From NCBI GenBank assembly GCA_024226555.1, contig JAAELO010000332.1:1-62653 (forward strand): DNA of 62,653 nt, in the 5' to 3' direction. How positions within the stretch are numbered: position 1 is the stretch's first letter; every line of letters starts with the position of its first letter. The DNA is from Desulfobacterales bacterium (GTDB taxonomy: Bacteria > Desulfobacterota > Desulfobacteria > Desulfobacterales > JAAELO01). The notes under the pieces are model-generated. The model was not told the origin of the DNA, ran no database searches, and was given only the letters and a program-made list of their open reading frames with translations. Made by a program: the position numbers and the translations under genes. Of this stretch, positions 9,584 through 38,847 are shown one piece after another.

Positions 9584-10693
9584 TCAATATGCTTTTAATA
9601 AGATGTTTGTTATATCACCTTCTGAAGGTTGCCTTGGATTACCTTTTGTGCATGCATCATCAACAGCATGTTTAGAAATTATTGAAAGGTCTTCCTTAAA
9701 ATCTTTTTCATTGACTCCGGCTTCACTTATTTTAACCGGAATTCCCATCTCTTTATTTAAGTTGTATATTGACTGAATTAAAAACTCTGTTCCATCTTCA
9801 ACTGATGAACCTTGATAACCAACCATTTCAGCAATAAGCCTGTATTTTTCTCCAACATCAAAACTGTTGAACCTGATAACATAAGGTAGCATCATGGAAT
9901 TCGCCTTACCATGTGGAATATGGTACATTCCACCCAAACTGTGTGCTATGCTGTGAGTTATTCCAAGACCACTATTATTAAATGCCATACCAGCCATACA
10001 GGATGCTAAAAGCATATTTTCCCGGGCTTCCATATCATCACCGTTTTTATATGCGCGCATCAGAAACCTGAAAACATATTTAATTGCATATTCAGAATAT
10101 ATATTGGTAAAAGCGTTTGAACCCCTTGAAGTATAAGCTTCAATAGCATGTGTCAAAACATCCATGCCTGTTGCAGCTGTAACCTGTGGTGGAACAGTTC
10201 GTGTAAACCTTGCATCAAGTATTGCCATATCCGGAATCATTAACTCATCAACAAGAGGAATTTTGATCTCATTCTCTTTATCAGTCACTACTGAAATTGC
10301 TGTTACTTCAGATCCGGTTCCACTTGTTGTCGGGATAGCTACAAGAGTTGGTTTTTTTTCATCATTTAAGGCTTTACAACCAAAATACATGATTGCTTTT
10401 GCTGCATCTATTGCAGAACCACCACCAAGAGCAATTACAAGGTCTGCTTTGTGGTTTAGAAGATCAACTGTTCCCTTCTTGATCGTTTCAAGTGAGGGAT
10501 CTGGTTCTACTTTGTCAAAAACAAAATGACAAATTCCAGCACGGTCCAGATGACTTATAATCCGACTTATAAAACCGGATTTTACCATAAAAGGGTCAGT
10601 TACTATAAAAGCACTCTTTGCTTTTATATTCTCAAGTACTTCCATGGCATCGGTACCATAACAGATCTTTGTTCTTCCATTAAACTGCGTCAT
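9584..10693 (-). CDS. Iron-containing alcohol dehydrogenase (EutG/PduQ/CutO type)
   Basis: A 369-aa type III alcohol dehydrogenase. It has GGGSAIDAAKA for NAD+ binding and the metal set D..H...H...H in MDVLTHAIEAY and HSIAHSLGGMYHIPHG. It would reduce acetaldehyde to ethanol inside the compartment and regenerate NAD+. It lies between a shell gene and pduS in the cut operon. It is the only alcohol dehydrogenase in either BMC locus, so the ethanolamine compartment either borrows it or uses one encoded elsewhere. Confidence 0.9.
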   Translation of the reverse strand: MTQFNGRTKICYGTDAMEVLENIKAKSAFIVTDPFMVKSGFISRIISHLDRAGICHFVFDKVEPDPSLETIKKGTVDLLNHKADLVIALGGGSAIDAAKAIMYFGCKALNDEKKPTLVAIPTTSGTGSEVTAISVVTDKENEIKIPLVDELMIPDMAILDARFTRTVPPQVTAATGMDVLTHAIEAYTSRGSNAFTNIYSEYAIKYVFRFLMRAYKNGDDMEARENMLLASCMAGMAFNNSGLGITHSIAHSLGGMYHIPHGKANSMMLPYVIRFNSFDVGEKYRLIAEMVGYQGSSVEDGTEFLIQSIYNLNKEMGIPVKISEAGVNEKDFKEDLSIISKHAVDDACTKGNPRQPSEGDITNILLKAY

Positions 10694-12645: not shown

Positions 12646-13467
12646 CTAATCAAAACAATTCATTGCAATACCCATGGGTGTTACAAGAAATGGATTTGCA
12701 GGTTTATAAACAGGAATGCCTGTTTCCTTTTCAATCACTTCCTCAATCTTAGAAAGACAACATGTTCCACCTACAAGATATATCGCTGAAATATCACGTC
12801 CTTTAATATGATTGTTTATGATTGAAGAAATTTTCTGGATTACTGGTATTACAACCGGCAGTATTTCTCTCTGTTTATCTTTCTTTTTCTTCAGATTCTC
12901 AGCTTCTTCGAAACTGATTTTGTAACTTCCGGATACTACCAGTGAGAAATGAGTTCCTCCGGTCGCTTCATCAGCAACATAAACAACTTTACCATCTTCA
13001 ATAACAGATAGTCCTGTTGTTCCTCCGCCAATATCAACTATAACGCCATTTTTTACATCAAGAACTGCATTGGCTGCTGTTGGTTCATCAAGAACTTTAG
13101 TTACTTCAAGTCCTGCACCTTCAACAACGTAACTATGAGTTTTACAATCCTTATTACCAGTTTCCGGTGGTACAGCAATCGCTGCCTTTTCTAAAGAACG
13201 TCCAAGCCTTTTTTCAAGATCTTCAACAAGTTTTCTAACTATTCTGGTTGCACCAATATAATCAACAACAAGACCATCCTTAATTACCTGTGCAAACTCC
13301 ATTGCACATGCAACAGGCTTTTTCTGACTATTTAAAACAACAACAACTATATAAGCTGTTCCAAGATCCACCCCAACATAAAGCTTTTCGTCAGGTAAGA
13401 TAGATGCTGTTTCATCAAGACAACTCTCAAGGTCTCTTATTTGTTGATCAATGAATGTGAAGTCCAC
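12646..13467 (-). CDS. eutJ: EutJ-like Hsp70/actin-fold ATPase
   Basis: A 273-aa actin-fold ATPase. YVGVDLGTAYIVVV is phosphate loop 1, VDIGGGTTGLSV is phosphate loop 2, and DEPTAAN and ADEATGG match EutJ throughout. EutJ is thought to act as a chaperone for compartment enzymes. A GTG start at 13467 is chosen because AGGAG lies seven bases upstream and a longer reading would overlap pduL much further. The chosen start still overlaps pduL by 20 bp. The ethanolamine locus has no EutJ and carries EutT in the corresponding position. Confidence 0.88.
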   Translation of the reverse strand: MDFTFIDQQIRDLESCLDETASILPDEKLYVGVDLGTAYIVVVVLNSQKKPVACAMEFAQVIKDGLVVDYIGATRIVRKLVEDLEKRLGRSLEKAAIAVPPETGNKDCKTHSYVVEGAGLEVTKVLDEPTAANAVLDVKNGVIVDIGGGTTGLSVIEDGKVVYVADEATGGTHFSLVVSGSYKISFEEAENLKKKKDKQREILPVVIPVIQKISSIINNHIKGRDISAIYLVGGTCCLSKIEEVIEKETGIPVYKPANPFLVTPMGIAMNCFD

Positions 13468-14137
13468 GACTTGTCTCCTTATGTTTACCAACAATTCTGC
13501 CAGAAACATTTTTATTCCAGCCCGCACCATTTCCCTCATCCAGATCTATATGCATTGAAAGTCTGAAGTTTTCATTTGTTCGAACACAAACATCCTCAAG
13601 AATAGCTGGTCTGTCACCATCGATGTGAACACTTACAAGGTCTTTATCTGAAACACCCATTTTAAGAGCTTCACCTGGTGTCATATGTATGTGACGTCCT
13701 GCTACAATCAAGCCTTTTTCAAGACCTACTATGCCTTTATGTGACGCTAAAATAATTCCAGGAGTTCCATCAATATCTCCGGAATGCTTTACAGGAGTCT
13801 CTGTACCAAGTATTCTTGCATCAGTTTTTGAGATCTCAACCTGAGAGAAATCTCTTGATGGACCAAGAATTGCTACATTATCTATGACACCTTTTGGGCC
13901 AATTAATCGAACCCTCTCTTTACACAGAAACTGTCCAGGTTGGGACAGTTCCCTCACGTGAGTTAGAGGACCACCAAAAAGAGCGATAGCGTCTTGCTCG
14001 CTTAGATGAACATGTCGTGCTGAAAGTTCTACCGGAATGGCAATACTTTCTTTTGAATCAACCAGGGAGGTTGGCGCCTCATTCACAAGCTGATTCATCA
14101 CTTTATTTATAATATCTTCTACAATTTTCTCGTTCAT
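13448..14137 (-). CDS. pduL: PduL-type phosphate acyltransferase (phosphotransacetylase)
   Basis: Converts acetyl-CoA and phosphate to acetyl phosphate, freeing CoA inside the shell. The two PduL domains show the zinc histidines in ELSARHVHLSE and AGRHIHMTP, with ELSQPGQFL and LGPSRDFSQVEIS between. The start at 14137 (MNEKIVEDII) is preferred over one 36 bases upstream: GGAG lies nine bases before it and the paralogue at 39985 starts the same way. The first 18 residues form a likely encapsulation helix. Confidence 0.92.
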   Translation of the reverse strand: MNEKIVEDIINKVMNQLVNEAPTSLVDSKESIAIPVELSARHVHLSEQDAIALFGGPLTHVRELSQPGQFLCKERVRLIGPKGVIDNVAILGPSRDFSQVEISKTDARILGTETPVKHSGDIDGTPGIILASHKGIVGLEKGLIVAGRHIHMTPGEALKMGVSDKDLVSVHIDGDRPAILEDVCVRTNENFRLSMHIDLDEGNGAGWNKNVSGRIVGKHKETSRGLHIH

Positions 14138-14199
14138 TAAATGCTCCGCAAACTCACTACTGGGAATCTCCAAAGATTCCTTGTTTTCCGATTAATACT

Positions 14200-14524: not shown

Positions 14525-15964
14525 TTAAGCCATTTTTTTTAATTGTTCTATTATAAGTGCCGTAACTGCACTAATATCTGTTTCAGAAATTTCAACTTTA
14601 GACTGCGTATCTTCACACATCTCATTTCCAAGATCATAAGCAACACGTCTTATGTTCATAAGATTTAATGGAGTAACGTTATCTGAGGTAGCACTACCAC
14701 CGATTGTTCCGCATCCAAGAGTAAATGAAGGGAACAGATTTGTTGTTATTCCAACAGCTCCATGGGTTGAAGGTGTATTTACAAGCATTCTTGAAACTGG
14801 TTTCTTCATACCAAATTCACGAATTACTTCCTCATTTTTTGAGTGAATAACAAGAGAGTGACCAATTCCACCATTTTTAAGAATCTTAAAGCAAAGCTCA
14901 CAACCTTCTTTCCAGTCACTTACTGTGTAGAAACCGATCAAAGAAGTTAGTTTCTCTTTTGAGAAAGGATATTTTGGACCAACACCTTCCTCTTCACAGA
15001 TCATCAGACGTGTGCCATCTGGTATCTCAATACCAGCAAGATCAGCTATATATTTAGCATCACGACCAACTATTTTAGGGTTCATATCACCATTAGGCCG
15101 TTCCATAACTCTTTTCACTTTTTCAAGTTTCTCACCCTCAAGGAAATAACCACCATTAGCTATTAAAGATTTCTTAACTTTATCTGCAATAACTGACTCA
15201 GCAATAATTGACTGTTCTGAAGCACATACAGTTCCGTTATCAAAGGTCTTACTCTTAAAAATCTTACTTACAGCATCTTCAACATCAGCACTTCTTTCAA
15301 TGAAAGCAGGTACATTACCAGCACCTACACCAAGAGCAGGAGTTCCTGAGCTGTATGCAGCTTTAACCATTCCAGGGCCACCTGTTGCCAGAATCAGATC
15401 TGCAACTTTCATCAACTCAACACTACCTTCAATTGAAGGTAATCTCATAACGTTAACAAGATCTTTAGATACTCCACATTTATGCAGAACACCTCTAATC
15501 ATCTCAACTGTTTCCCAGATGCACTTTTGAGCACTTGGGTGCGGTGTAAACACAATCGCATTTCCAGACTTTAGTGAGATCATTGATTTGTATATAGTTG
15601 TTGAAGTTGGGTTAGTTGAAGGGATAATACCTGCAATAACTCCCATTGGTGTAGCAATTTCGATGATTTTACCTTCTTTATCATCATTAAGAACACCAAT
15701 TGTCTTCATATCTTTTATTGCTTCGTAAAGTTTCTCACTAGCAAGTATGTTTTTTGCTTTTTTATCTTCAACTTTTCCAAAACCTGTCTCGTTTACAGCT
15801 AACTCAGCCAATGATTGTGCATGTTCCGTTGCTGTATCTGCGATCGCTTTGGTTATAGCATCTACTTTATCCTGTCCAAGCTCTGCAAAATCTGCCTGAG
15901 CTTTTTTAGCACTTCTTACAAGGGCACGTGCTTCCTGAATTGACAATAAGTCCTTATCTACCAT
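14525..15964 (-). CDS. CoA-acylating acetaldehyde dehydrogenase (EutE/CutF type)
   Basis: A 479-aa aldehyde dehydrogenase that oxidises the acetaldehyde made by CutC to acetyl-CoA with NAD+. The catalytic Cys is intact in [11 protein letters not shown], and PSTNPTSTT and [15 protein letters not shown] mark the CoA-acylating subgroup. The C-terminal [15 protein letters not shown] is a likely encapsulation helix. AGGAG lies eight bases before the ATG. It is closely related along its whole length to the eutE at 37402. Confidence 0.94.
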
Positions 15965-15967
15965 GGT

Positions 15968-16558
15968 TTACTCCTCTTTATCTCTGTAAGCTTTTTTAAT
16001 AGCCTCAATCAATTCTTTCTTTCGGGTTACATTGATCTTTTTACGAGCAACTGAAAACCCTTCAAAAGTTCTTGCAATTTGCCTAAGCTTACTAACACTC
16101 ATTTTTTTCAACTTAGAGATCTCATATCGGGAACTTTCAGATTGAATTCCCTTTCCACTATCTTTTTTACCCTCTGAATCTTGTTTGTCAATTTCAGATT
16201 TCTCGTCAATCAAACCAGTCTCTTCTTCAATGACCTCGGATTCAGTTTGTTCGACCATCTCCGGTTCAATATCCGACAATTCAGATGATTCTTTAAGAAT
16301 ATCTTCCAATCCATCAGCGGTTTTAGCTATAACTGTAACAGAGTGAACTGTTCCTAATCTCTCAGCAGCAACCTTTCCTGCTTCAACAGAAGCATTTACA
16401 GAGCTGACATCACCTGTCATCAGGATTGAAACCAGTCCTGCGCCCAGAAACTGATATTCCAAAAGTTCAACTTCTGCTGATTTAACCGCAGTATCTGCAG
16501 CTTCTATAGCTGGTACAAGACCAATTGTCTCAATTATTCCCAGAGCTTTGCCGTTCAT
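15968..16558 (-). CDS. BMC shell protein with acidic linker and C-terminal SAP/Rho-N-like domain (EutK-like)
   Basis: A 196-aa protein in three parts. A BMC domain (1-90, ALGIIETIGLVPAIEAADTAVKSA) is followed by an acidic, low-complexity linker (about 95-145, many Glu/Asp/Ser). A basic C-terminal module (150-196, KKMSVSKLRQIARTFEG and RKKELIEAI) resembles SAP/Rho-N helical extensions. Enterobacterial EutK also has a C-terminal nucleic-acid-binding-like domain, but of a different fold. The stop of the preceding gene overlaps this start. The same architecture recurs at 36770. Confidence 0.85.
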   Translation of the reverse strand: MNGKALGIIETIGLVPAIEAADTAVKSAEVELLEYQFLGAGLVSILMTGDVSSVNASVEAGKVAAERLGTVHSVTVIAKTADGLEDILKESSELSDIEPEMVEQTESEVIEEETGLIDEKSEIDKQDSEGKKDSGKGIQSESSRYEISKLKKMSVSKLRQIARTFEGFSVARKKINVTRKKELIEAIKKAYRDKEE

Positions 16559-16972: not shown

Positions 16973-17914
16973 CTAATGCCTGATAACTGAAACCGGAAAG
17001 TTATATTTTTTTATATTACTTTCAATTTTCATCAGTTCTTCTTCTGTCAAACCAGGATCATTATTCAGTGGATAATTCCACCCCAGTTGTTTGTACTTAT
17101 TTACTCCCAGTTTATGATAAGGAAGAAGATCCACTCCTTTAAAACCTTTGTATTCACGGAATGGTTCCAGAAAATCAATTAGTTTTTTAATATCATTCTC
17201 ACTGTCATTCACATTTTTTAACAGTGGTACTCTTATTCTCACATTTTTTCTGTTTTGAAGAAGTAATTTCAGGTTTCTCAAAATAGATTCATTACGAACT
17301 CCTGTGAGTTTATAATGTATTTCTGAATCCATATGTTTTATGTCAAAGAGAAAGAGATCCGTAAATTCAGCAACTTTCATCAATGCCTCAGGCTTTGCAT
17401 AACCGCATGTTTCCACGGCGGTATTTATGCCTCGCTGCTTGCATACATTAAGTAGGTTAACCACTGCTTCAGGCTGCATTAAAGCTTCACCACCACCCAG
17501 TGTTAATCCGCCTTCTGACATCTCATAAAAGGCTCTATCCTCTTCAACAATCTCCATTATTTCTGAGATTGTTTTCACTTCGCCAACAACGGATAAAGCT
17601 TTTGCTGTGCATACCTCTTCACATTTTCTGCAACCTATACATTCACTTCCATCAACAAACTCATGCTTCTCATTTATTGGTGAAAGCTTATGTACTCCTG
17701 TGGGACAAACAGAAACACATGCACCGCAATCAACGCACTGACTCTCTTTGTACATCACCTGATGTTTCTTCTTCTGACTTTCAGGATTTGAGCACCATTT
17801 GCAACGAAGTGGACACCCTTTGAAGAAAACAATAGTTCTCACTCCAGGCCCATCATACATGTTGTACTTTTGTATGTTGAATATCAGTGCTTTTCTTTCA
17901 ATCATGTCGCTCAT
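16973..17914 (-). CDS. cutD: Choline TMA-lyase-activating enzyme (radical SAM)
   Basis: A 313-aa glycyl-radical-enzyme activase. CPLRCKWC is the radical-SAM CxxxCxxC motif. Two ferredoxin-type clusters follow, CVDCGACVSVCP and CIGCRKCEEVC, the extra domain of this activase subgroup. GGLTLGGGEALMQ is the conserved SAM-binding segment. It installs the glycyl radical on CutC, encoded directly upstream. The ATG at 17914 is used, although TTG at 17923 or ATG at 17905 are possible and no strong ribosome site decides. It is oxygen sensitive, which implies anaerobic use. Confidence 0.93.
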   Translation of the reverse strand: MSDMIERKALIFNIQKYNMYDGPGVRTIVFFKGCPLRCKWCSNPESQKKKHQVMYKESQCVDCGACVSVCPTGVHKLSPINEKHEFVDGSECIGCRKCEEVCTAKALSVVGEVKTISEIMEIVEEDRAFYEMSEGGLTLGGGEALMQPEAVVNLLNVCKQRGINTAVETCGYAKPEALMKVAEFTDLFLFDIKHMDSEIHYKLTGVRNESILRNLKLLLQNRKNVRIRVPLLKNVNDSENDIKKLIDFLEPFREYKGFKGVDLLPYHKLGVNKYKQLGWNYPLNNDPGLTEEELMKIESNIKKYNFPVSVIRH

Positions 17915-17964
17915 AGTGCTCAAATTCCCGTTCTCATCTCATCTCATCTATTTATTACTTCAAA

Positions 17965-18050: not shown

Positions 18051-20591
18051 CTATAATTCATGAATCATGGTTCTACTAATAATCTCATCCTGAACATCCT
18101 TACAAAGCTCAACAAAGAAAGCACTGTAACCGGCAACACGCACAACAAGGTCACGATATTTTTCAGGATGTTTCTGAGCATCAAGAAGAGTATCGTTATC
18201 AAGGTAATTAAACTGCATTTCACCATTACCAAGCATACAAGCTGTTCTGATAAGAGTGATAACTCCGTTTTCACCTTCTGGTGTATCAAGAAGCCCTGCC
18301 ATCAATTTGAAGTTGTGAACCATACCAATGTTCATATTGTCGTTGGACATTTTGGAAATTGACTTGATAATTGCTGTTGGTCCCTTAAAGTCAGCACCCT
18401 GAGTTGGACTAATACCATCTGAAAGTGGCATCCATGCATCACGACCGTTTGCAGAAGCTCCTAAGAGCTGACCAAAAGGAGTGTTGTTTGAAATAGATAG
18501 TGTGCCATGACTAAGTACAGAGTAAAGCGTTTTGAATTTTCTGTGCTCTGTTTCTGTAAAGTTAACAAGATCTGCTGCAATTAGGTCAGCATAATCATCA
18601 TCATTTCCGTATTTAGGTGCTGCAAGGCAATCTGCTTTGATCTGGTCATATCCGACAAATTCAGCTATAAGTGCTTCATTCATCTGTGCAAGTGTATATT
18701 TTTTATCGTCATAAACCAGTTTTTTAATTGCAGCCATTGAATCAACATAAGTTGCAAGACCACTCCATATAACACCTGGTCCGAAGTTGTACATTGCTCC
18801 ACCTGCTGAAACATCTTTTCCTGTTTCCATGCAACCTTCATACATACTCGACATAAGAGGCTTTGGCGCAAGATCTTTATGAACTCTCTGAGAAATTACA
18901 GTACCAACACTTGACCATTTTGTTATCCATTTGATCTGCTCTTTAACAGCAGTTTCGAATTTCTCGTAAGTATCGAAGGAACCGATTTCACCTAAGTCTG
19001 GAGTAACCTGCTTTTTATACCAAACCGGAACACCCTGATTTAGAACAAGTTCAATACAGATTGGCCACTGTGTGTAAGCTGTTGAAGTCCACTGATATAG
19101 ACGACCTGATTTCTGAGGTTCAACACATCCCATAAGACAGTAATCACGAGCATCTTCAATGGAAACGCCCTTTGCCAGCATCATTTTGATGTGGGTATCG
19201 TCAAAGTGAATCGCAGGAAAACCCATTCCGGCGCGTATTACTTCAACAATTTTTTTAAGATATTTCTGAGGAGATTTATTGTGTACACGTGTTGCAAGAG
19301 ATGGCTGGTAAATTTTTACGTGTCTTACTGCATCCATTAAAAGGTATGTCAGATCGTTTGTTGCATCAAGACCATCACGCGTAACACCACCAACACACAT
19401 ATTAACAAATGGCTGGTATCCTGCAAAATATTTAGCACCTTCTTCAGACAAAAGCCACATCATCTCTGACATTTTTACAAGCATACAACCTGAAAGATCA
19501 AATGCTTCATAATCAGTCATTCGACCTGCTTCAAGATCTGCTTTATAAAATGGATACATGTACTGATCCACACGACCAATAGACATACCAGTCTGATTTT
19601 CTTCAACAACAAGAAGAGATTCTATTGTCCATACAGACTGAATAGCCTCCCAGTAAGTTTCTGGTTTATGAGCAGGAACTCTTGCATTTACTGCAGAAAT
19701 CTTTTCAAGCTCTGCTTTTCGCTTTGGATCTGTCTCTTTTGCTGCAAGTTCGCATGCATAATCTGAAAGTCTTTTAGCATAGATCATAACCCCTTCTGTT
19801 GTGTCTATAAGGGATTTATAATAGTATATTTTGTCAATATCATCAGGATTTTCATAATCCAGTTTTTCAAGATGATCTTTTGCTTCCTGCTGAATATCAA
19901 GCATACCCTTTTTCATAAGGATAACATCATAACCAGGGTTTGAATCACCACCACCATTTACAGCATGGTAAGAACAATCTGAAACATAAGACTCACCAGA
20001 CATCTCCCATATACCAGCTTCACGATACTGCTGCTCACAATATTCATCTACAGACTGGCCTTCCCAGAATGGAAAAAGCTCTTCACGCATGACTTTTTTA
20101 TCATCTTCTGAAACATAGAAAGGGTCCTGAGGACGTGTTCCCATAGTATCAAGTTCTTCAGAAACCCAACGCCAGGCAATATCCGGTGAAAATGCTCCAG
20201 CTCTTGGCGCTCCATTTGGCGAACCAACGATAAGTTCATTCTCCTGAATAACAAGCGGAGCAGTTTCACAGCAGTATTTAAAGCACTTACCGCGAAGTAC
20301 TAACTTTGGCATACCAGGGTTTTCTTTTGCAATTTTGGTAATTGCTCGAGCACGGTGAATAGTCAAACTTGGGGTTTGCTTAAGAAAGTTTTCCTTAAGC
20401 TTTACATGACGTTCTGTTGGTCCATCAGGAATACTAATGCCATCTGATGGAATAGTATTTTTATCTGATGATTTCTTTTTTATTATTTCAGCAGAAACAC
20501 CTTCAAAGATCTTTTTTAGCGCCTCACGATCTTTCGGAGTCAGACCTTTTGTTGCTTCTGCAAGTTTATTTGAAAAATTTTGAAGATCCAA
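18051..20591 (-). CDS. cutC: Choline trimethylamine-lyase (glycyl radical enzyme)
   Basis: An 846-aa glycyl radical enzyme that cleaves choline to trimethylamine and acetaldehyde. Counting residues places every known Desulfovibrio CutC active-site position at its published number: Tyr208 and Asp216 ([10 protein letters not shown]), Phe395, Cys489 and Glu491 (MGCVEP), Thr502 (YQWTST) and the radical Gly821 in RVAGYSAFF. This set separates CutC from glycerol, diol and formate lyases. It follows the Cys-less aldehyde dehydrogenase gene and precedes cutD. Confidence 0.98.
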
Positions 20592-20637: not shown

Positions 20638-20763
20638 GCGAGCCTCAAATAATTGCTTTTTGACCGAACTACTGCGTTTTTCTGAAAAATAGACTTTAAA
20701 GCGTAGGCTATTTTTTTTCATGCCTTGTATTTCAATCAAAACTCTAATCATTTACAGGCTCCC
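20638..20763 (-). repeat. RepA repeat, copy 7 (diverged ends)
   Basis: About 126 bp between the Cys-less dehydrogenase gene and cutC. Ends have drifted to GAGCCTCAAATAATTG and ACAGGCTCCC, but the interior (TTTTGACCGAACTAC, TGCCTTGTATTTCAATC) is clearly RepA. On the minus strand it abuts the stop codon of the upstream gene (TAG running into GGGAGCC). Confidence 0.75.
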
Positions 20764-22253
20764 TATTTATCCATTGCCTGGATAACTTCATTTAAGATAC
20801 TTTGTATTGTTTGTATGTTACCTATATTTTCATCTTCCTTCTGAAATTTACTTTCCAGGGAAGGTTTCTTTTTTTCTTTAATTTCGCCTCTGATAGAATC
20901 AAAGTTTCTTACACCATACCCAATTTTACGGATATAAATCAGATTCATAGGAGAGACATTATCAGATGTTATTCCATCTCCAGCTGATCCACTTCCAAGT
21001 GTCATAGAAGGGAAAAGATTGGTTGTTGCACCGATTCCACCAAGGGTTGCAGGTGTATTTACAAGCATTCTTCCCACAGGTTTTTTCAGGGCAAACAGAC
21101 GAATAACTTCCTGATCATTTGAGTGTATTACAAGGGTATGTCCGTTTCTTTTACTTAGAAGTAATTCAATACATTTTTCACATGCATCCATCCAGTCATC
21201 TTCAACATAATATGTCAAAACCGGACATAACATCTCCTTTGAATAAGGATCATTTTCAGAAACGTATTTCCTTTCAACCAGTAAAACAGATGTATTTTCC
21301 GGTACAGAAAACCCTGCTCTTTGAGCTAACGTTATGGCCGCAACCCCAACACACTCAGATTTTGACTTTCCGTCAGAAAAAAAATGTGATGCTAATTTAA
21401 CAGACTCATTTTCAGACATGAAATATGCACCATTTTCTAGTAATTCCTGTCTTACTTTATCTGCAATTGGTCCATCAACAACAATGGATTGTTCTGCTGA
21501 TGGAACAATTCCATTATCAAAGGTTTTGCTATTTATAATATCTTTCACTGCCTGCTTGATATCAGCTGTTCGTTCAATAAAAGCCGGCCCGTTTCCGGTT
21601 CCACCGTATATAACTGGTTTTCCGGATTTATAAGCAGCTTTTAGTAAATTCGAAACTCCTGTATTCATAATCAGGGATGTTGCATAATGACCCATCAATT
21701 CACAGGTTCCGCTTTTAGTAACAGTATTTAAATACGCAAGACTACCCTCAGGTAAACCTTTCGATTCCGCTACCTCTTTCATGATATCAAGTACTTTGGT
21801 GATAGTATTTTTTGCTCTTGGATGTGGTGAAAAAATTATGGAATTACCCGATTTTATTGAAATCAGGGTTTTATATATAGTTGTTGAAACCGGACTTGTA
21901 GCTGGACATAATGCAACGATAACACCTACAGGCACACCGATATCCATCATTTTATTCTGCTTATCTTCACTAATAATGCCTACACAACGCATACCTCTTA
22001 ACTGTTTGCGGGCATAACCACATACGAATTGATTCTTTAAGCATTTATCCTGCTGTTTGCCATAATCAGTTTCCTCATTAGACATAACAGCAAGTGTCTG
22101 GATATGTTTTTCAACAGAATCAGCCATGCTCTCAACAATCTCATCCAGTTTCTCCTGGGAAAATGTTGCGAGTTTTTTCTGTGATTCAAAGGCATTTTCG
22201 GCCAGAATCCGGGCTTCCTGAATGGAGAGCAAATCGTTATCAACAATAGTCAT
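20763..22253 (-). CDS. Catalytically impaired aldehyde dehydrogenase homologue of the cut locus
   Basis: A 496-aa relative of EutE with the same N-terminus ([17 protein letters not shown]) and fold. The active-site segment reads FDNGIVPSAEQ where the working paralogues read [11 protein letters not shown], so Pro replaces the nucleophilic Cys and the CoA-acylating reaction should be impossible. It is otherwise full length and has a long C-terminal tail ending in IQTIQSILNEVIQAM, a typical encapsulation helix. A structural or scaffolding role, perhaps tying CutC to the shell, is an inference. It lies between the first shell genes and cutC. Confidence 0.88.
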   Translation of the reverse strand: MTIVDNDLLSIQEARILAENAFESQKKLATFSQEKLDEIVESMADSVEKHIQTLAVMSNEETDYGKQQDKCLKNQFVCGYARKQLRGMRCVGIISEDKQNKMMDIGVPVGVIVALCPATSPVSTTIYKTLISIKSGNSIIFSPHPRAKNTITKVLDIMKEVAESKGLPEGSLAYLNTVTKSGTCELMGHYATSLIMNTGVSNLLKAAYKSGKPVIYGGTGNGPAFIERTADIKQAVKDIINSKTFDNGIVPSAEQSIVVDGPIADKVRQELLENGAYFMSENESVKLASHFFSDGKSKSECVGVAAITLAQRAGFSVPENTSVLLVERKYVSENDPYSKEMLCPVLTYYVEDDWMDACEKCIELLLSKRNGHTLVIHSNDQEVIRLFALKKPVGRMLVNTPATLGGIGATTNLFPSMTLGSGSAGDGITSDNVSPMNLIYIRKIGYGVRNFDSIRGEIKEKKKPSLESKFQKEDENIGNIQTIQSILNEVIQAMDK

Positions 22254-22314: not shown

Positions 22315-22443
22315 TGAATCTCTAATAACTGCCTTTTGACCAAACTACATCGTTATTACGAAAAAAGAACTGTAGTAAAATCGGCTCGTTATTTTTTCTA
22401 ATGCCTTGTATTTCAATCAAAATTCTAATTATTAGAGTTTCCC
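22315..22443 (-). repeat. RepA repeat, copy 8 (full length)
   Basis: A 129-bp copy. On the minus strand its first 19 bases overlap the end of the shell gene at 22425 and supply that protein's last residues and stop codon. Flanks are TGTT and TGTG, a 3 of 4 match. Confidence 0.88.
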
Positions 22444-22745
22444 TGTGGCAATAACTTATTAAGATCATATCGTCCGGTGATCTTAGCTAAATCCACATGT
22501 GGTGTTGGTATCACAACAGAGCTATGTACTTCAGCACCCATATCTTCAACTGCTTTTACTCCAGCTTCTACAGCTGCCTGACATGCTCCAACATCTCCCT
22601 GAATCAATACAGAAATATATCCTGAAGCTGTGTTTTCATAACCTGTTAATTCTACATCTGCTGTTTTCAGCATTGCATCTGCAGCTTCAAGTACAAAAAC
22701 TATCCCAAATGTTTCTATTAATCCCAGTGCTCTTGCTTTGGTCAT
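22425..22745 (-). CDS. Hexameric BMC shell protein of the cut locus
   Basis: A 106-aa single-BMC-domain protein (ALGLIETFGIVFVLEAADAMLKTA, then QGDVGACQAAVEAG). The pore region YENTASGYISV differs from EutM, so it probably has different permeability. The final residues GNSNN and the TAG stop are encoded inside a RepA repeat, so the original C-terminus has been replaced. It overlaps no other gene and starts 17 bases after the first shell gene. Confidence 0.9.
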   Translation of the reverse strand: MTKARALGLIETFGIVFVLEAADAMLKTADVELTGYENTASGYISVLIQGDVGACQAAVEAGVKAVEDMGAEVHSSVVIPTPHVDLAKITGRYDLNKLLPQGNSNN

Positions 22746-22762: not shown

Positions 22763-23062
22763 TTACTCAACATCTACATCGTGAACAGAAACAATATCAC
22801 CAACACCTTTAATTGGTCGTGGCATAACGTTCTGTGCAGTCAATGTACCTATTTCAGCTGCTGCTTCTGCGCCTGCTTCTACAGCAGCCTTAACAGCACC
22901 TACATCACCTTTAATCATTACAGCTACAAGAGTAGATCCAATATTTTCGTATGATATCAACTCAACATTTGCTGCTTTCAACATTTTGTCCGCTGCATAA
23001 AGTGCAGGAACCATCCCCAATGTCTCAATGAGTCCTAATGCTTCTTCTCCATAATAACGCAT
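22763..23062 (-). CDS. Hexameric BMC shell protein, first gene of the cut operon
   Basis: A 99-aa single-BMC-domain shell protein ([38 protein letters not shown]) with a short acidic tail. AAGGGA precedes the ATG. It is the promoter-proximal gene of the cut operon. A promoter with MerR-type spacing lies about 60 bases upstream. Confidence 0.92.
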   Translation of the reverse strand: MRYYGEEALGLIETLGMVPALYAADKMLKAANVELISYENIGSTLVAVMIKGDVGAVKAAVEAGAEAAAEIGTLTAQNVMPRPIKGVGDIVSVHDVDVE

Positions 23063-36769: not shown

Positions 36770-37405
36770 ATGGATGAAAAAGCTCTTGGTTTAATCGAAA
36801 CAATTGGTTTGATTCCTGCCGTTGAGGCAGCAGATACAGCTGTTAAATCTGCTTCTGTTGAACTTGAGGGTTTCCGTATGATTGGTGCTGGTCTGGTGAC
36901 AATTCTTATACGGGGTGATGTAAGTTCTGTTCAGGCATCTGTTGATGCAGGGAGATGTGCAGCTGAACGAGTTGGGGAAGTAATTTCTGCTCACGTTATT
37001 GCAAGAACAGGTGAAGGTCTTGAATCAGTTTTACCTGACCCTGAAAAAGGATCGACCAGTAATGATCTTTCTGATGTAAAAAATAGTACCGATGCTCTTG
37101 AAAAATCAAGTGATGCTTCTGATGAAGTAACAGATACTATTCTGGAAGTTGAAGAATCACAAATTGATTTTAAGGATATAACTGTTGAAGATGTGGATCT
37201 TGCAGACCAGATGGAAAGGGAAATTAGTTCTAAAATCAAAATCCCAGGAAAATCAGCACTGAAGAAAATGAATGTAACCAAGCTTAGAGAACTTGCCCGA
37301 AAAACAGAAGGCATTTCAATCAGCCGGAAAGATATTAAATCAGCCCGAAAAAAGGAACTGATAGAAGCTATTTTTAAAGCTCATCAGAAACAGGAGAAAC
37401 TATGA
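36770..37405 (+). CDS. BMC shell protein with acidic linker and C-terminal SAP/Rho-N-like domain (EutK-like)
   Basis: A 211-aa protein with the same three-part layout as the cut-locus protein at 15968. A BMC domain (1-90, ALGLIETIGLIPAVEAADTAVKSA) is followed by an acidic Asp/Glu/Ser-rich linker (about 92-160). The basic tail (163-211) reads LKKMNVTKLRELARKTEG and RKKELIEAIFKAH. The tail is the best conserved part after the BMC domain, so it is functional, probably binding nucleic acid or a partner protein. Its stop overlaps the eutE start. Confidence 0.86.
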   Translation: MDEKALGLIETIGLIPAVEAADTAVKSASVELEGFRMIGAGLVTILIRGDVSSVQASVDAGRCAAERVGEVISAHVIARTGEGLESVLPDPEKGSTSNDLSDVKNSTDALEKSSDASDEVTDTILEVEESQIDFKDITVEDVDLADQMEREISSKIKIPGKSALKKMNVTKLRELARKTEGISISRKDIKSARKKELIEAIFKAHQKQEKL

Positions 37406-38847
37406 TGGTAGATAAAGACCTATTGTCGATTCAGGAAGCAAGAGCTTTAATTAGAAGTGCCCGTGAAGCCCTGACATACTTTTCAGATATAGGACAGGAA
37501 AAAGTAGATTCAATTATAAAAGCAATCACAGATGCAGCTGTTAGTAATGCAGAAGATCTTGCAAAAATGGCAGTTGAAGAAACAGGGTTTGGTAAATGGC
37601 AGGATAAGAAAGCTAAAAACATGCTTGCCAGTGAGAAGCTGTATCACCATATCAAAGATATGAAAACTATTGGTGTCATCAATGAGGATAAGGAAAAGAA
37701 AATTATTGAGATTGCTACTCCGGCAGGAGTAATAGCAGCATTAATTCCCTCTACAAATCCAACATCTACGACTATTTATAAAGCGATGATCTCGTTGAAA
37801 TCAGGTAATGCCGTAGTTTTCAGTCCCCATCCAAGTGCAAAAAAGTGTATTGGGAAAACCGTTGAAATTATAAGATCCGCTCTGAAAAGTCAGGGAGCCC
37901 CGGAAGAACTTGTTTCTGTGATGAGTTTTCCTTCAATTGAAGGAACAGACGAGTTAATGAAAGAATCAGATCTTATCCTTGCTACAGGTGGACCGGCAAT
38001 GGTTAAAGCGGCATATTCTTCAGGAACCCCGGCTTTAGGAGTTGGTGCTGGAAACGTTCCGGCTTTTATAGAAAGAAGTGCAGATGTTGATTCTGCAATT
38101 GATAAAATTCTTGTAAGCAAAACTTTCGATAACGGAACTGTTTGTGCTTCGGAGCAGGCTATTATCACTGAAAGAGTTATAGAAGAAAAAGTAAGAGCTT
38201 CTCTTATTTCCAAAGGTGTATATTTCCTTGAAGGTGAGAAACTAAACCGGGTAAAAGCTGTAATGGAGCGACCAAACGGAGCAATGAATCCTGATATTGT
38301 TGGCCGTGATGCTGGATTTATAGCAGCTAAAGCAGGTATTGAAATTCCATATGGCACCCGTCTTCTTGTGAGTGATGAAGAAGGTGTGGGACCTCGTTTT
38401 CCATTTTCAAAAGAGAAGCTAACAGCCCTTATCGGTTTCTATACAGTAGAAAACTGGGAAGAAGGCTGTGAAATGTGTTTTGATCTTCTGAAGAACGGAG
38501 GCATCGGCCACTCACTTGTAATACATTCCAACAACGAAGAAGTTATCAGAGAATTTGGACTTAAAAAGCCTGTTTCAAGAATGCTTGTGAATACTCCATC
38601 AACACATGGTGCTGTGGGTATCACAACCGGGCTTGCACCATCTTTTACTCTTGGTTGCGGCACTGTTGGTGGAAGTGCAACTTCGGATAATGTTGGACCT
38701 CAGCATCTTTTTAATATCAGAAGAGTTGCCTATGACCTTAATAACAAATCATGTGCAGCTCCAAAGATCACAGGGTCATCAGATGTTGATATCAAACTTG
38801 TTACAGAACTGATCATAAATCAGCTTAAAAATATAACTGTAGCATAA
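37402..38847 (+). CDS. eutE: CoA-acylating acetaldehyde dehydrogenase
   Basis: A 481-aa enzyme making acetyl-CoA from acetaldehyde. The catalytic Cys is present in [18 protein letters not shown] and PSTNPTSTT mark the group. The C-terminal [15 protein letters not shown] is a likely encapsulation helix. It overlaps the preceding gene by four bases (ATGA). It is closely similar to the cut-locus enzyme at 14525. Confidence 0.96.

What the first reader, a model, noticed from the sequence alone, without database searches (positions are those of the whole stretch)
20763..22253. Full-length aldehyde dehydrogenase with Pro in place of the catalytic Cys in the choline locus
FDNGIVPSAEQ replaces [11 protein letters not shown] seen in both functional paralogues in this window. 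The rest of the protein is intact and gains a C-terminal encapsulation-type helix. It is placed next to cutC, ahead of it in the operon. A dead enzyme kept in the operon suggests a scaffold or encapsulation role.
Basis: partly seen in the sequence, partly recalled or inferred. Interest (0 to 1): 0.74.

Follow-up and report, generated by a model that had tools for sequence, protein, structure and literature searches.

The report
Dead aldehyde dehydrogenase beside choline lyase
Next to the choline-splitting enzyme of a bacterial organelle sits a full-length aldehyde dehydrogenase that has lost its reactive cysteine; this kind of dead copy is already on record, is kept by selection in many bacteria, and may help hold the organelle's enzyme core together.

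Summary
The gene is real: minus strand 20763-22253, 496 codons, FDNGIVPSAEQ where both paralogues in the window have [11 protein letters not shown]. The state is already published as a hallmark of GRM1 choline loci (Axen 2014: Cys to Ser or Pro, scaffold or regulator suggested; Sutter 2021: 'putatively inactive second copy'). Tested here: 142 homologue rows have Ser 82, Pro 50, Ala 7, Thr 3, Cys 0; anchored on CutC instead, 66 of 68 loci have such an AldDH upstream, none with Cys, and two have none. Purifying selection: dN/dS 0.036-0.158. The oxyanion Asn and an NAD-loop Gly are lost too. One reader claim is wrong: the C-terminal encapsulation helix is not a gain; active paralogues have one. 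New here: a reciprocal pattern. Where CutC is short and an AldDH lies upstream, that AldDH is dead (68 of 68); where CutC carries an extra ~300-residue GRE-like domain, it is live (8 of 8). Four short-CutC loci have no dead AldDH. I favour a structural role in core assembly; no binding was tested.

The parts
20763..22253 (-). Cys-less AldDH-like gene (GRM1 second AldDH), 496 aa
21501..21503 (-). codon 251: Pro at the catalytic Cys position
21894..21896 (-). codon 120: Ser at the oxyanion-hole Asn position (role of the Asn recalled from ALDH biochemistry)
21654..21656 (-). codon 200: Val where the actives have Gly, after Thr-Gly (assignment to the NAD loop recalled)
20769..20822 (-). C-terminal helix, residues 478-495, after a low-confidence linker 461-479: encapsulation-peptide-like
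18051..20591 (-). cutC, short form, 846 aa; the TIGR04394 match begins at residue 58
16973..17923 (-). cutD activase
   Evidence: TIGR04395
14525..15964 (-). live acylating AldDH of the choline operon, Cys present
37402..38847 (+). live acylating AldDH of the ethanolamine operon, Cys present
22425..22745 (-). BMC-H shell gene upstream
22763..23062 (-). BMC-H shell gene upstream
13448..14173 (-). PduL-type phosphotransacylase
9584..10693 (-). iron alcohol dehydrogenase

Best explanation
It is the GRM1-type second AldDH: a paralogue of the acylating acetaldehyde dehydrogenase that lost the catalytic Cys early (one loss suffices on the tree) and is kept as a structural part of the choline microcompartment core. 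Shown: absence of the nucleophile in every homologue row, loss of the oxyanion Asn in most, purifying selection, a place beside cutC in nearly all loci seen, a C-terminal encapsulation-type helix, an AldDH fold in the model. Inferred: it assembles as an AldDH-type oligomer, binds CutC and/or the live AldDH and, through its tail helices, the shell or other tails, and so cross-links the core. In GRM2 loci one live AldDH (CutF) would do both jobs, with the GRE-like N-terminal domain of a long CutC as its partner; in GRM1 the two jobs would be split between a live and a dead AldDH.
For: 0 Cys in 142 rows (82 Ser, 50 Pro, 7 Ala, 3 Thr). At least 14 changes of residue state at that position on a 109-row tree with that column left out, with dead and live rows on two sides of one branch (100*): the position drifts among small residues without a return to Cys. 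CutC-anchored test: 68 loci, 62 with a Cys-less AldDH adjacent, 4 with one beyond an alcohol dehydrogenase gene, 2 without. dN/dS 0.036-0.158 in the 20 of 22 pairs where it could be computed (several dS values above 1). A C-terminal tail of 32-70 aa in 123 of 142 rows measured; of the other 19, which lack the anchor motif, one is cut by a contig end and the rest still run on past the core, one (L181) with an odd tail. The C-terminal strand 435-450 is the one of seven regions that I marked off which is more conserved in the dead family than in actives (mean entropy 0.73 against 1.03). Reciprocal pattern: short CutC with an upstream AldDH, 68 of 68 Cys-less; long CutC, 8 of 8 Cys. Kalnins 2020 (PMC6971018, passages read): in GRM2, CutF needs the CutC N-terminal domain to co-migrate with shells and shifts CutC to larger complexes.
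Against: No interaction was tested. Two complete GRM1 loci with short CutC and shell genes (G646, G685) have no Cys-less AldDH in the whole genome at E <= 1e-50, so it is not indispensable. The general-base His372 is kept in 127 of 141 rows and the NAD-ribose Glu340 in 139 of 142, more than a pure scaffold needs. The tail helix is less conserved than in actives (entropy 2.48 against 1.60, shaky alignment). dN/dS exceeds that of cutC in 16 of 19 comparable pairs (equal in 1, lower in 2) and that of a live AldDH in 7 of 10 (in two of those ten the live gene is a fragment, and orthology of the live genes was not checked). The reciprocal pattern may rest on only one or two evolutionary switches. 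Kalnins 2020 themselves call encapsulation of the core in the presence of CutF not certain, and did not study GRM1.
Confidence: 0.53

Rival explanations
1. Regulatory subunit: the dead AldDH forms mixed oligomers with the live paralogue and tunes its activity or its NAD/CoA balance.
For: Homologue of the live enzyme in the same operon; His372 and Glu340 mostly retained; Axen 2014 (PMC4207490, passages) names regulator as an option.
Against: The live paralogue is only 41% identical over the alignment and the two families are fully separated; co-conservation of interfaces was not tested.
Confidence: 0.2
2. Ligand binding or altered chemistry: the remodelled pocket (Ser120, Val122, Val200, Tyr216, Gly217, Ala253 nearly fixed) binds a metabolite such as CoA, NADH, acetaldehyde or trimethylamine, or acts without the usual Cys, perhaps with another one such as the family-specific Cys90.
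For: The replacing residues are themselves conserved (16 positions fixed differently in the two families); Cys90 is Cys in 133 of 139 rows with a letter there and in none of 36 active rows.
Against: The catalytic position itself wanders among Ser, Pro, Ala, Thr (at least 14 changes); the five GRM1b-like rows have Val at 90; Cys90 lies just before the strand that pairs in the oligomerisation hairpin, by analogy away from the catalytic loop (inference; no coordinates were available).
Confidence: 0.15
3. Passenger: kept because it sits in an operon and folds well, with no strong function.
For: Two GRM1 genomes do without it; it evolves somewhat faster than cutC.
Against: dN/dS at or below 0.158 in all 20 computable pairs; present in 66 of 68 CutC-anchored loci.
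Confidence: 0.06
4. Sequencing or assembly error at the Cys codon.
For: None.
Against: No homologue row has Cys there.
Confidence: 0.01

Closest known systems
GRM1 second AldDH (Axen 2014 PMC4207490; Sutter 2021 PMC8217296, GRM1A/GRM1B putatively inactive copy)
   Same: Same locus type, same loss of the catalytic Cys to Pro or Ser, same presence of a live AldDH in the locus.
   Different: Nothing basic. Added here: Ala and Thr also occur, the oxyanion Asn and an NAD-loop Gly are lost too, place relative to cutC, selection, and the CutC-architecture pattern.
GRM2 CutF (Kalnins 2020 PMC6971018)
   Same: AldDH upstream of cutC with C-terminal encapsulation-like tail; 49-53% identical to the dead AldDH over the matched part in the 8 long-CutC loci.
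   Different: Keeps the Cys and goes with a long CutC that has a GRE-like N-terminal domain.
3k9d, Listeria monocytogenes aldehyde dehydrogenase (closest solved structure)
   Same: Fold: TM 0.86 by query length, 47% identity, Foldseek E 9.9e-53.
   Different: 3k9d has fdngticaseq at the site (alignment).

Membership tests
GRM1 choline locus, second AldDH | choline lyase CutC and activase CutD in the locus | tested here: met
   TIGR04394 1658.5 bits (cut-off 1050), TIGR04395 533.6 (cut-off 360)
GRM1 choline locus, second AldDH | short CutC without the ~340-residue N-terminal extension of GRM2 | tested here: met
   846 aa ORF; TIGR04394 match begins at residue 58
GRM1 choline locus, second AldDH | two AldDHs, one with Ser or Pro at the catalytic Cys | tested here: met
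   definition from Axen 2014
GRM1 choline locus, second AldDH | clusters with the other Cys-less AldDHs | tested here: met
   dead and live rows on two sides of one branch, 100* (quick method)
acylating acetaldehyde dehydrogenase (TIGR02518) | score above curated cut-off | tested here: not met
   549.7 against 620.1; paralogues 650.8 and 663.5
acylating acetaldehyde dehydrogenase (TIGR02518) | catalytic Cys | tested here: not met
   Pro251
GRM2 CutF | long CutC partner in the locus | tested here: not met
   CutC 846 aa
structural pseudoenzyme / scaffold | binds CutC, live AldDH or shell | not testable with these tools
   needs pull-down or cryo-EM
encapsulation-peptide cargo | terminal amphipathic helix joined by a flexible linker | tested here: met
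   helix 478-495 after a stretch 461-479 with pLDDT below 50; best hydrophobic moment 0.57. That it directs encapsulation was not tested

The most novel reading that the evidence does not exclude
Choline microcompartments built their core scaffold in two ways, each by killing one of two partner enzymes: GRM2 duplicated part of the glycyl radical enzyme and kept it as a non-catalytic domain fused to CutC while its AldDH stayed alive, whereas GRM1 and GRM1b duplicated and killed the AldDH and kept CutC short. The dead AldDH would be the functional stand-in for the extra CutC domain.
Probability: 0.3. Interest if true: 0.62.

Novelty: already known. Interest (0 to 1): 0.38.

Why it matters
The dead AldDH has been on record since 2014; in the papers that I could search (listings, with passages of nine papers read) I met no test of its function. 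If it is the core scaffold of GRM1 organelles, it is a handle on how trimethylamine-producing microcompartments are assembled and a part for engineered compartments. The reciprocal pattern makes that guess directly testable.

Tried and rejected
Sequencing error: rejected, no homologue row has Cys. Decay: rejected by open frames and low dN/dS. Gain of an encapsulation helix: rejected, live paralogues have one. Cys90 as a substitute nucleophile: weakened, Val in the five GRM1b-like rows. Enrichment of changed positions at catalytic and cofactor motifs: only marginal (12 of 35 changed positions inside a 35-position site set out of 156 conserved ones; hypergeometric p 0.05, Fisher 0.067), so I do not lean on it. 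Independent switches of CutC architecture: keeping the 8 long CutCs plus the 2 short ones of the same branch as one clade is rejected at p-AU 0.016, but GRM1 plus GRM1b short CutCs as one clade is not rejected (p 0.089); these groups were named after the tree was seen. The 8 long CutCs alone as one clade gave p 1.4e-69, probably because the two short ones nest inside. Mapping residues on coordinates was not possible: the model's coordinates are not among the files of the Python box. Fitness of the D. alaskensis gene: Price 2014 (PMC4215793, passages read) lists Dde_3283 with the acetaldehyde-processing genes of its Figure 3; the values are in a figure that is not held. That Dde_3283 is this orthologue is inferred from its number next to cutC Dde_3282.

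Rows dropped before counts: 5 loci (L173-L177, 57-60% identity) and L244 (56%) were left out of the CutC-anchored count as other glycyl radical enzymes (L174, L175 and L244 fall outside CutC; L173, L176 and L177 were dropped on identity). Two of 32 matches and 14 of 44 had no locus and were not examined, except G1095, fetched later. For long CutCs one of 322 E. coli genomes with a match, one of two Klebsiella and one of two Proteus plasmid-collection records were read. The 142 rows include genes reached twice (15 of 62 CutC-anchored rows are over 99.5% identical to a row of the other set); thinned at 90% identity and 400 columns there are 92. Rows with under 300 bits were left out.

Full report
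WHAT IS THERE. The gene lies on the minus strand at 20763-22253 and codes for 496 residues from ATG without a stop. Residue 251 is Pro in FDNGIVPSAEQ. The paralogues at 14525-15964(-) and 37402-38847(+) have [11 protein letters not shown]. Pfam sees an aldehyde dehydrogenase in the dead copy and in the choline-operon paralogue (PF00171); NCBIfam's acylating acetaldehyde dehydrogenase model accepts both paralogues and not this one. Reading along the minus strand, a transporter-like gene (EamA, under its cut-off) and two BMC-H shell genes come first, then this gene, cutC, cutD, a BMC-H gene, the live AldDH, more shell genes, PduL, an actin-like gene, alcohol dehydrogenase, an RnfC-type (PduS-like) protein and a BMC-T gene (not all small genes were tested by profile). 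An ethanolamine operon runs the other way (named from recall of EutB and EutC).

PRIOR KNOWLEDGE. [quoted passage not shown] Sutter 2021 (PMC8217296, passages): GRM1A and GRM1B have a 'putatively inactive second copy'. So the observation and the main idea are published. Zarzycki 2015, Martinez-del Campo 2015, Kuehl 2014 and Herring 2018 are not held and may say more.

HOMOLOGUES. An alignment of seven relatives was used to scan genome contigs: 74 loci, of which 73 are Cys-less and one, L115, is a live AldDH in a locus with eutB. With the window, L004 and five Desulfovibrio-type genes this gives 80 rows: Ser 47, Pro 28, Thr 3, Ala 2; 35 live rows are all Cys. That scan used family-specific peptides, so I made a second one anchored on CutC. 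Of 68 CutC loci (25, 14, 29 more), 62 have a Cys-less AldDH directly upstream (Ser 35, Pro 22, Ala 5), four have one with Ser beyond an alcohol dehydrogenase gene, and two have none in the stretch. No Cys in 66. The two without (G646, G685) are full loci with shell genes and a live AldDH, and their genomes hold only Cys-bearing AldDHs at E <= 1e-50.

OTHER RESIDUES. Across 142 rows, the Gly200 of actives is Val 134, Arg 5, Ala 3; Asn120 is Ser 124, Asn 11, Gly 4, Asp 1, gap 2; His372 is kept in 127 of 141. Glu340 is kept in 139 of 142. Sixteen positions are fixed differently in the two families. The naming of Asn120 as oxyanion residue and of 200 as NAD loop is recalled; the His and Glu roles follow PMC5311937 (passages), transferred by motif.

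SELECTION AND TREE. dN/dS of the dead AldDH is 0.036-0.158 in 20 computable pairs of 22, above cutC in 16 of 19 comparable pairs, equal in one and below in two; several dS values are near saturation. On a tree of 109 rows without column 251, dead and live families lie on two sides of one branch (100*), and the residue at 251 needs at least 14 changes (quick method, root not inferred).

STRUCTURE. The AlphaFold2 model has pLDDT 85 and pTM 0.83, with a low-confidence linker 461-479 and a helix 478-495; closest solved chains are 3k9d and 5j7i/5j78. Tails of 32-70 residues follow the core in 123 of 142 rows that have the anchor motif; median best moment 0.63, against 0.43 in 23 of 37 live rows. 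The 19 rows without the motif were read by eye: one is cut by a contig end (L109), one has an odd tail (L181), the others run on into a similar tail. So both families carry an encapsulation-type tail.

RECIPROCAL PATTERN. Short CutC with an AldDH upstream: 68 of 68 Cys-less (66 above plus L245 with Pro and L251, Enterococcus raffinosus, with Pro). Long CutC (1136-1165 aa open frames): 8 of 8 with Cys (Photobacterium L229, L230 from a genome in the family of Clostridium ljungdahlii, E. coli L231, L246, L248, L249, Klebsiella L252, whose AldDH frame starts late, Proteus L253). In L230 the live AldDH stands directly before the long cutC, in the slot of the dead one. The extra N-terminal part matches CutC residues 218-438 at 27% in L230 and 252-438 at 30% in L229; [quoted passage not shown] Photobacterium G450 has one locus of each kind. 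Two short CutCs inside the long branch (L247, L250) have no AldDH in the 19.5 kb looked at; the L250 stretch has no shell gene hit either. On a careful CutC tree the GRM1b-like short CutCs are sister to the long L230 (97/93*), which hints at two switches, but the tests leave one switch open. GRM1b is my label, from CutC identity of 63-67% and gene order, not from a classifier.

MECHANISM. Shown: dead site, selection, location, tail, fold of the model. Inferred: oligomer, contacts with CutC or live AldDH, core cross-linking. [quoted passage not shown] this is the closest experimental parallel. My confidence in the structural role is 0.53.

VERDICT. Already known as a kind; well supported here; the one new angle is the reciprocal pattern, which I did not meet in the passages read and which needs wider sampling and a binding test.

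Noticed in passing
15968-16558(-) and 36770-37405(+): BMC-H shell proteins with a long charged linker and a C-terminal Rho_N-like segment (Pfam Rho_N 24.4 bits, just under its cut-off of 24.9, for the first; the second was compared by eye only); one in each of the choline and ethanolamine operons.
   Followed up: partly
L258:5649-7676, L087:14680-16680: In two gammaproteobacterial GRM1 loci the live AldDH runs on in one frame into what reads like a PduL-type phosphotransacylase (667-676 aa).
   Followed up: no
L258:15853-16299: A 149-codon open frame whose translation reads like pieces of the tail of the dead AldDH, the end of CutC and the end of CutD: perhaps the remnant of a lost second copy of that block (only the CutC part was matched by BLAST).
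   Followed up: no
L254, L255 (genomes G646, G685): Complete GRM1 loci without the dead AldDH; natural test cases for what it does.
   Followed up: partly
L067, L077, L079: The dead AldDH carries Thr at the catalytic position, and about 1.2 kb separates it from cutC.
   Followed up: no
L251, Enterococcus raffinosus megaplasmid NZ_CP081847.1: A GRM1 choline locus with the dead AldDH (Pro) on a 985 kb plasmid record.
   Followed up: no
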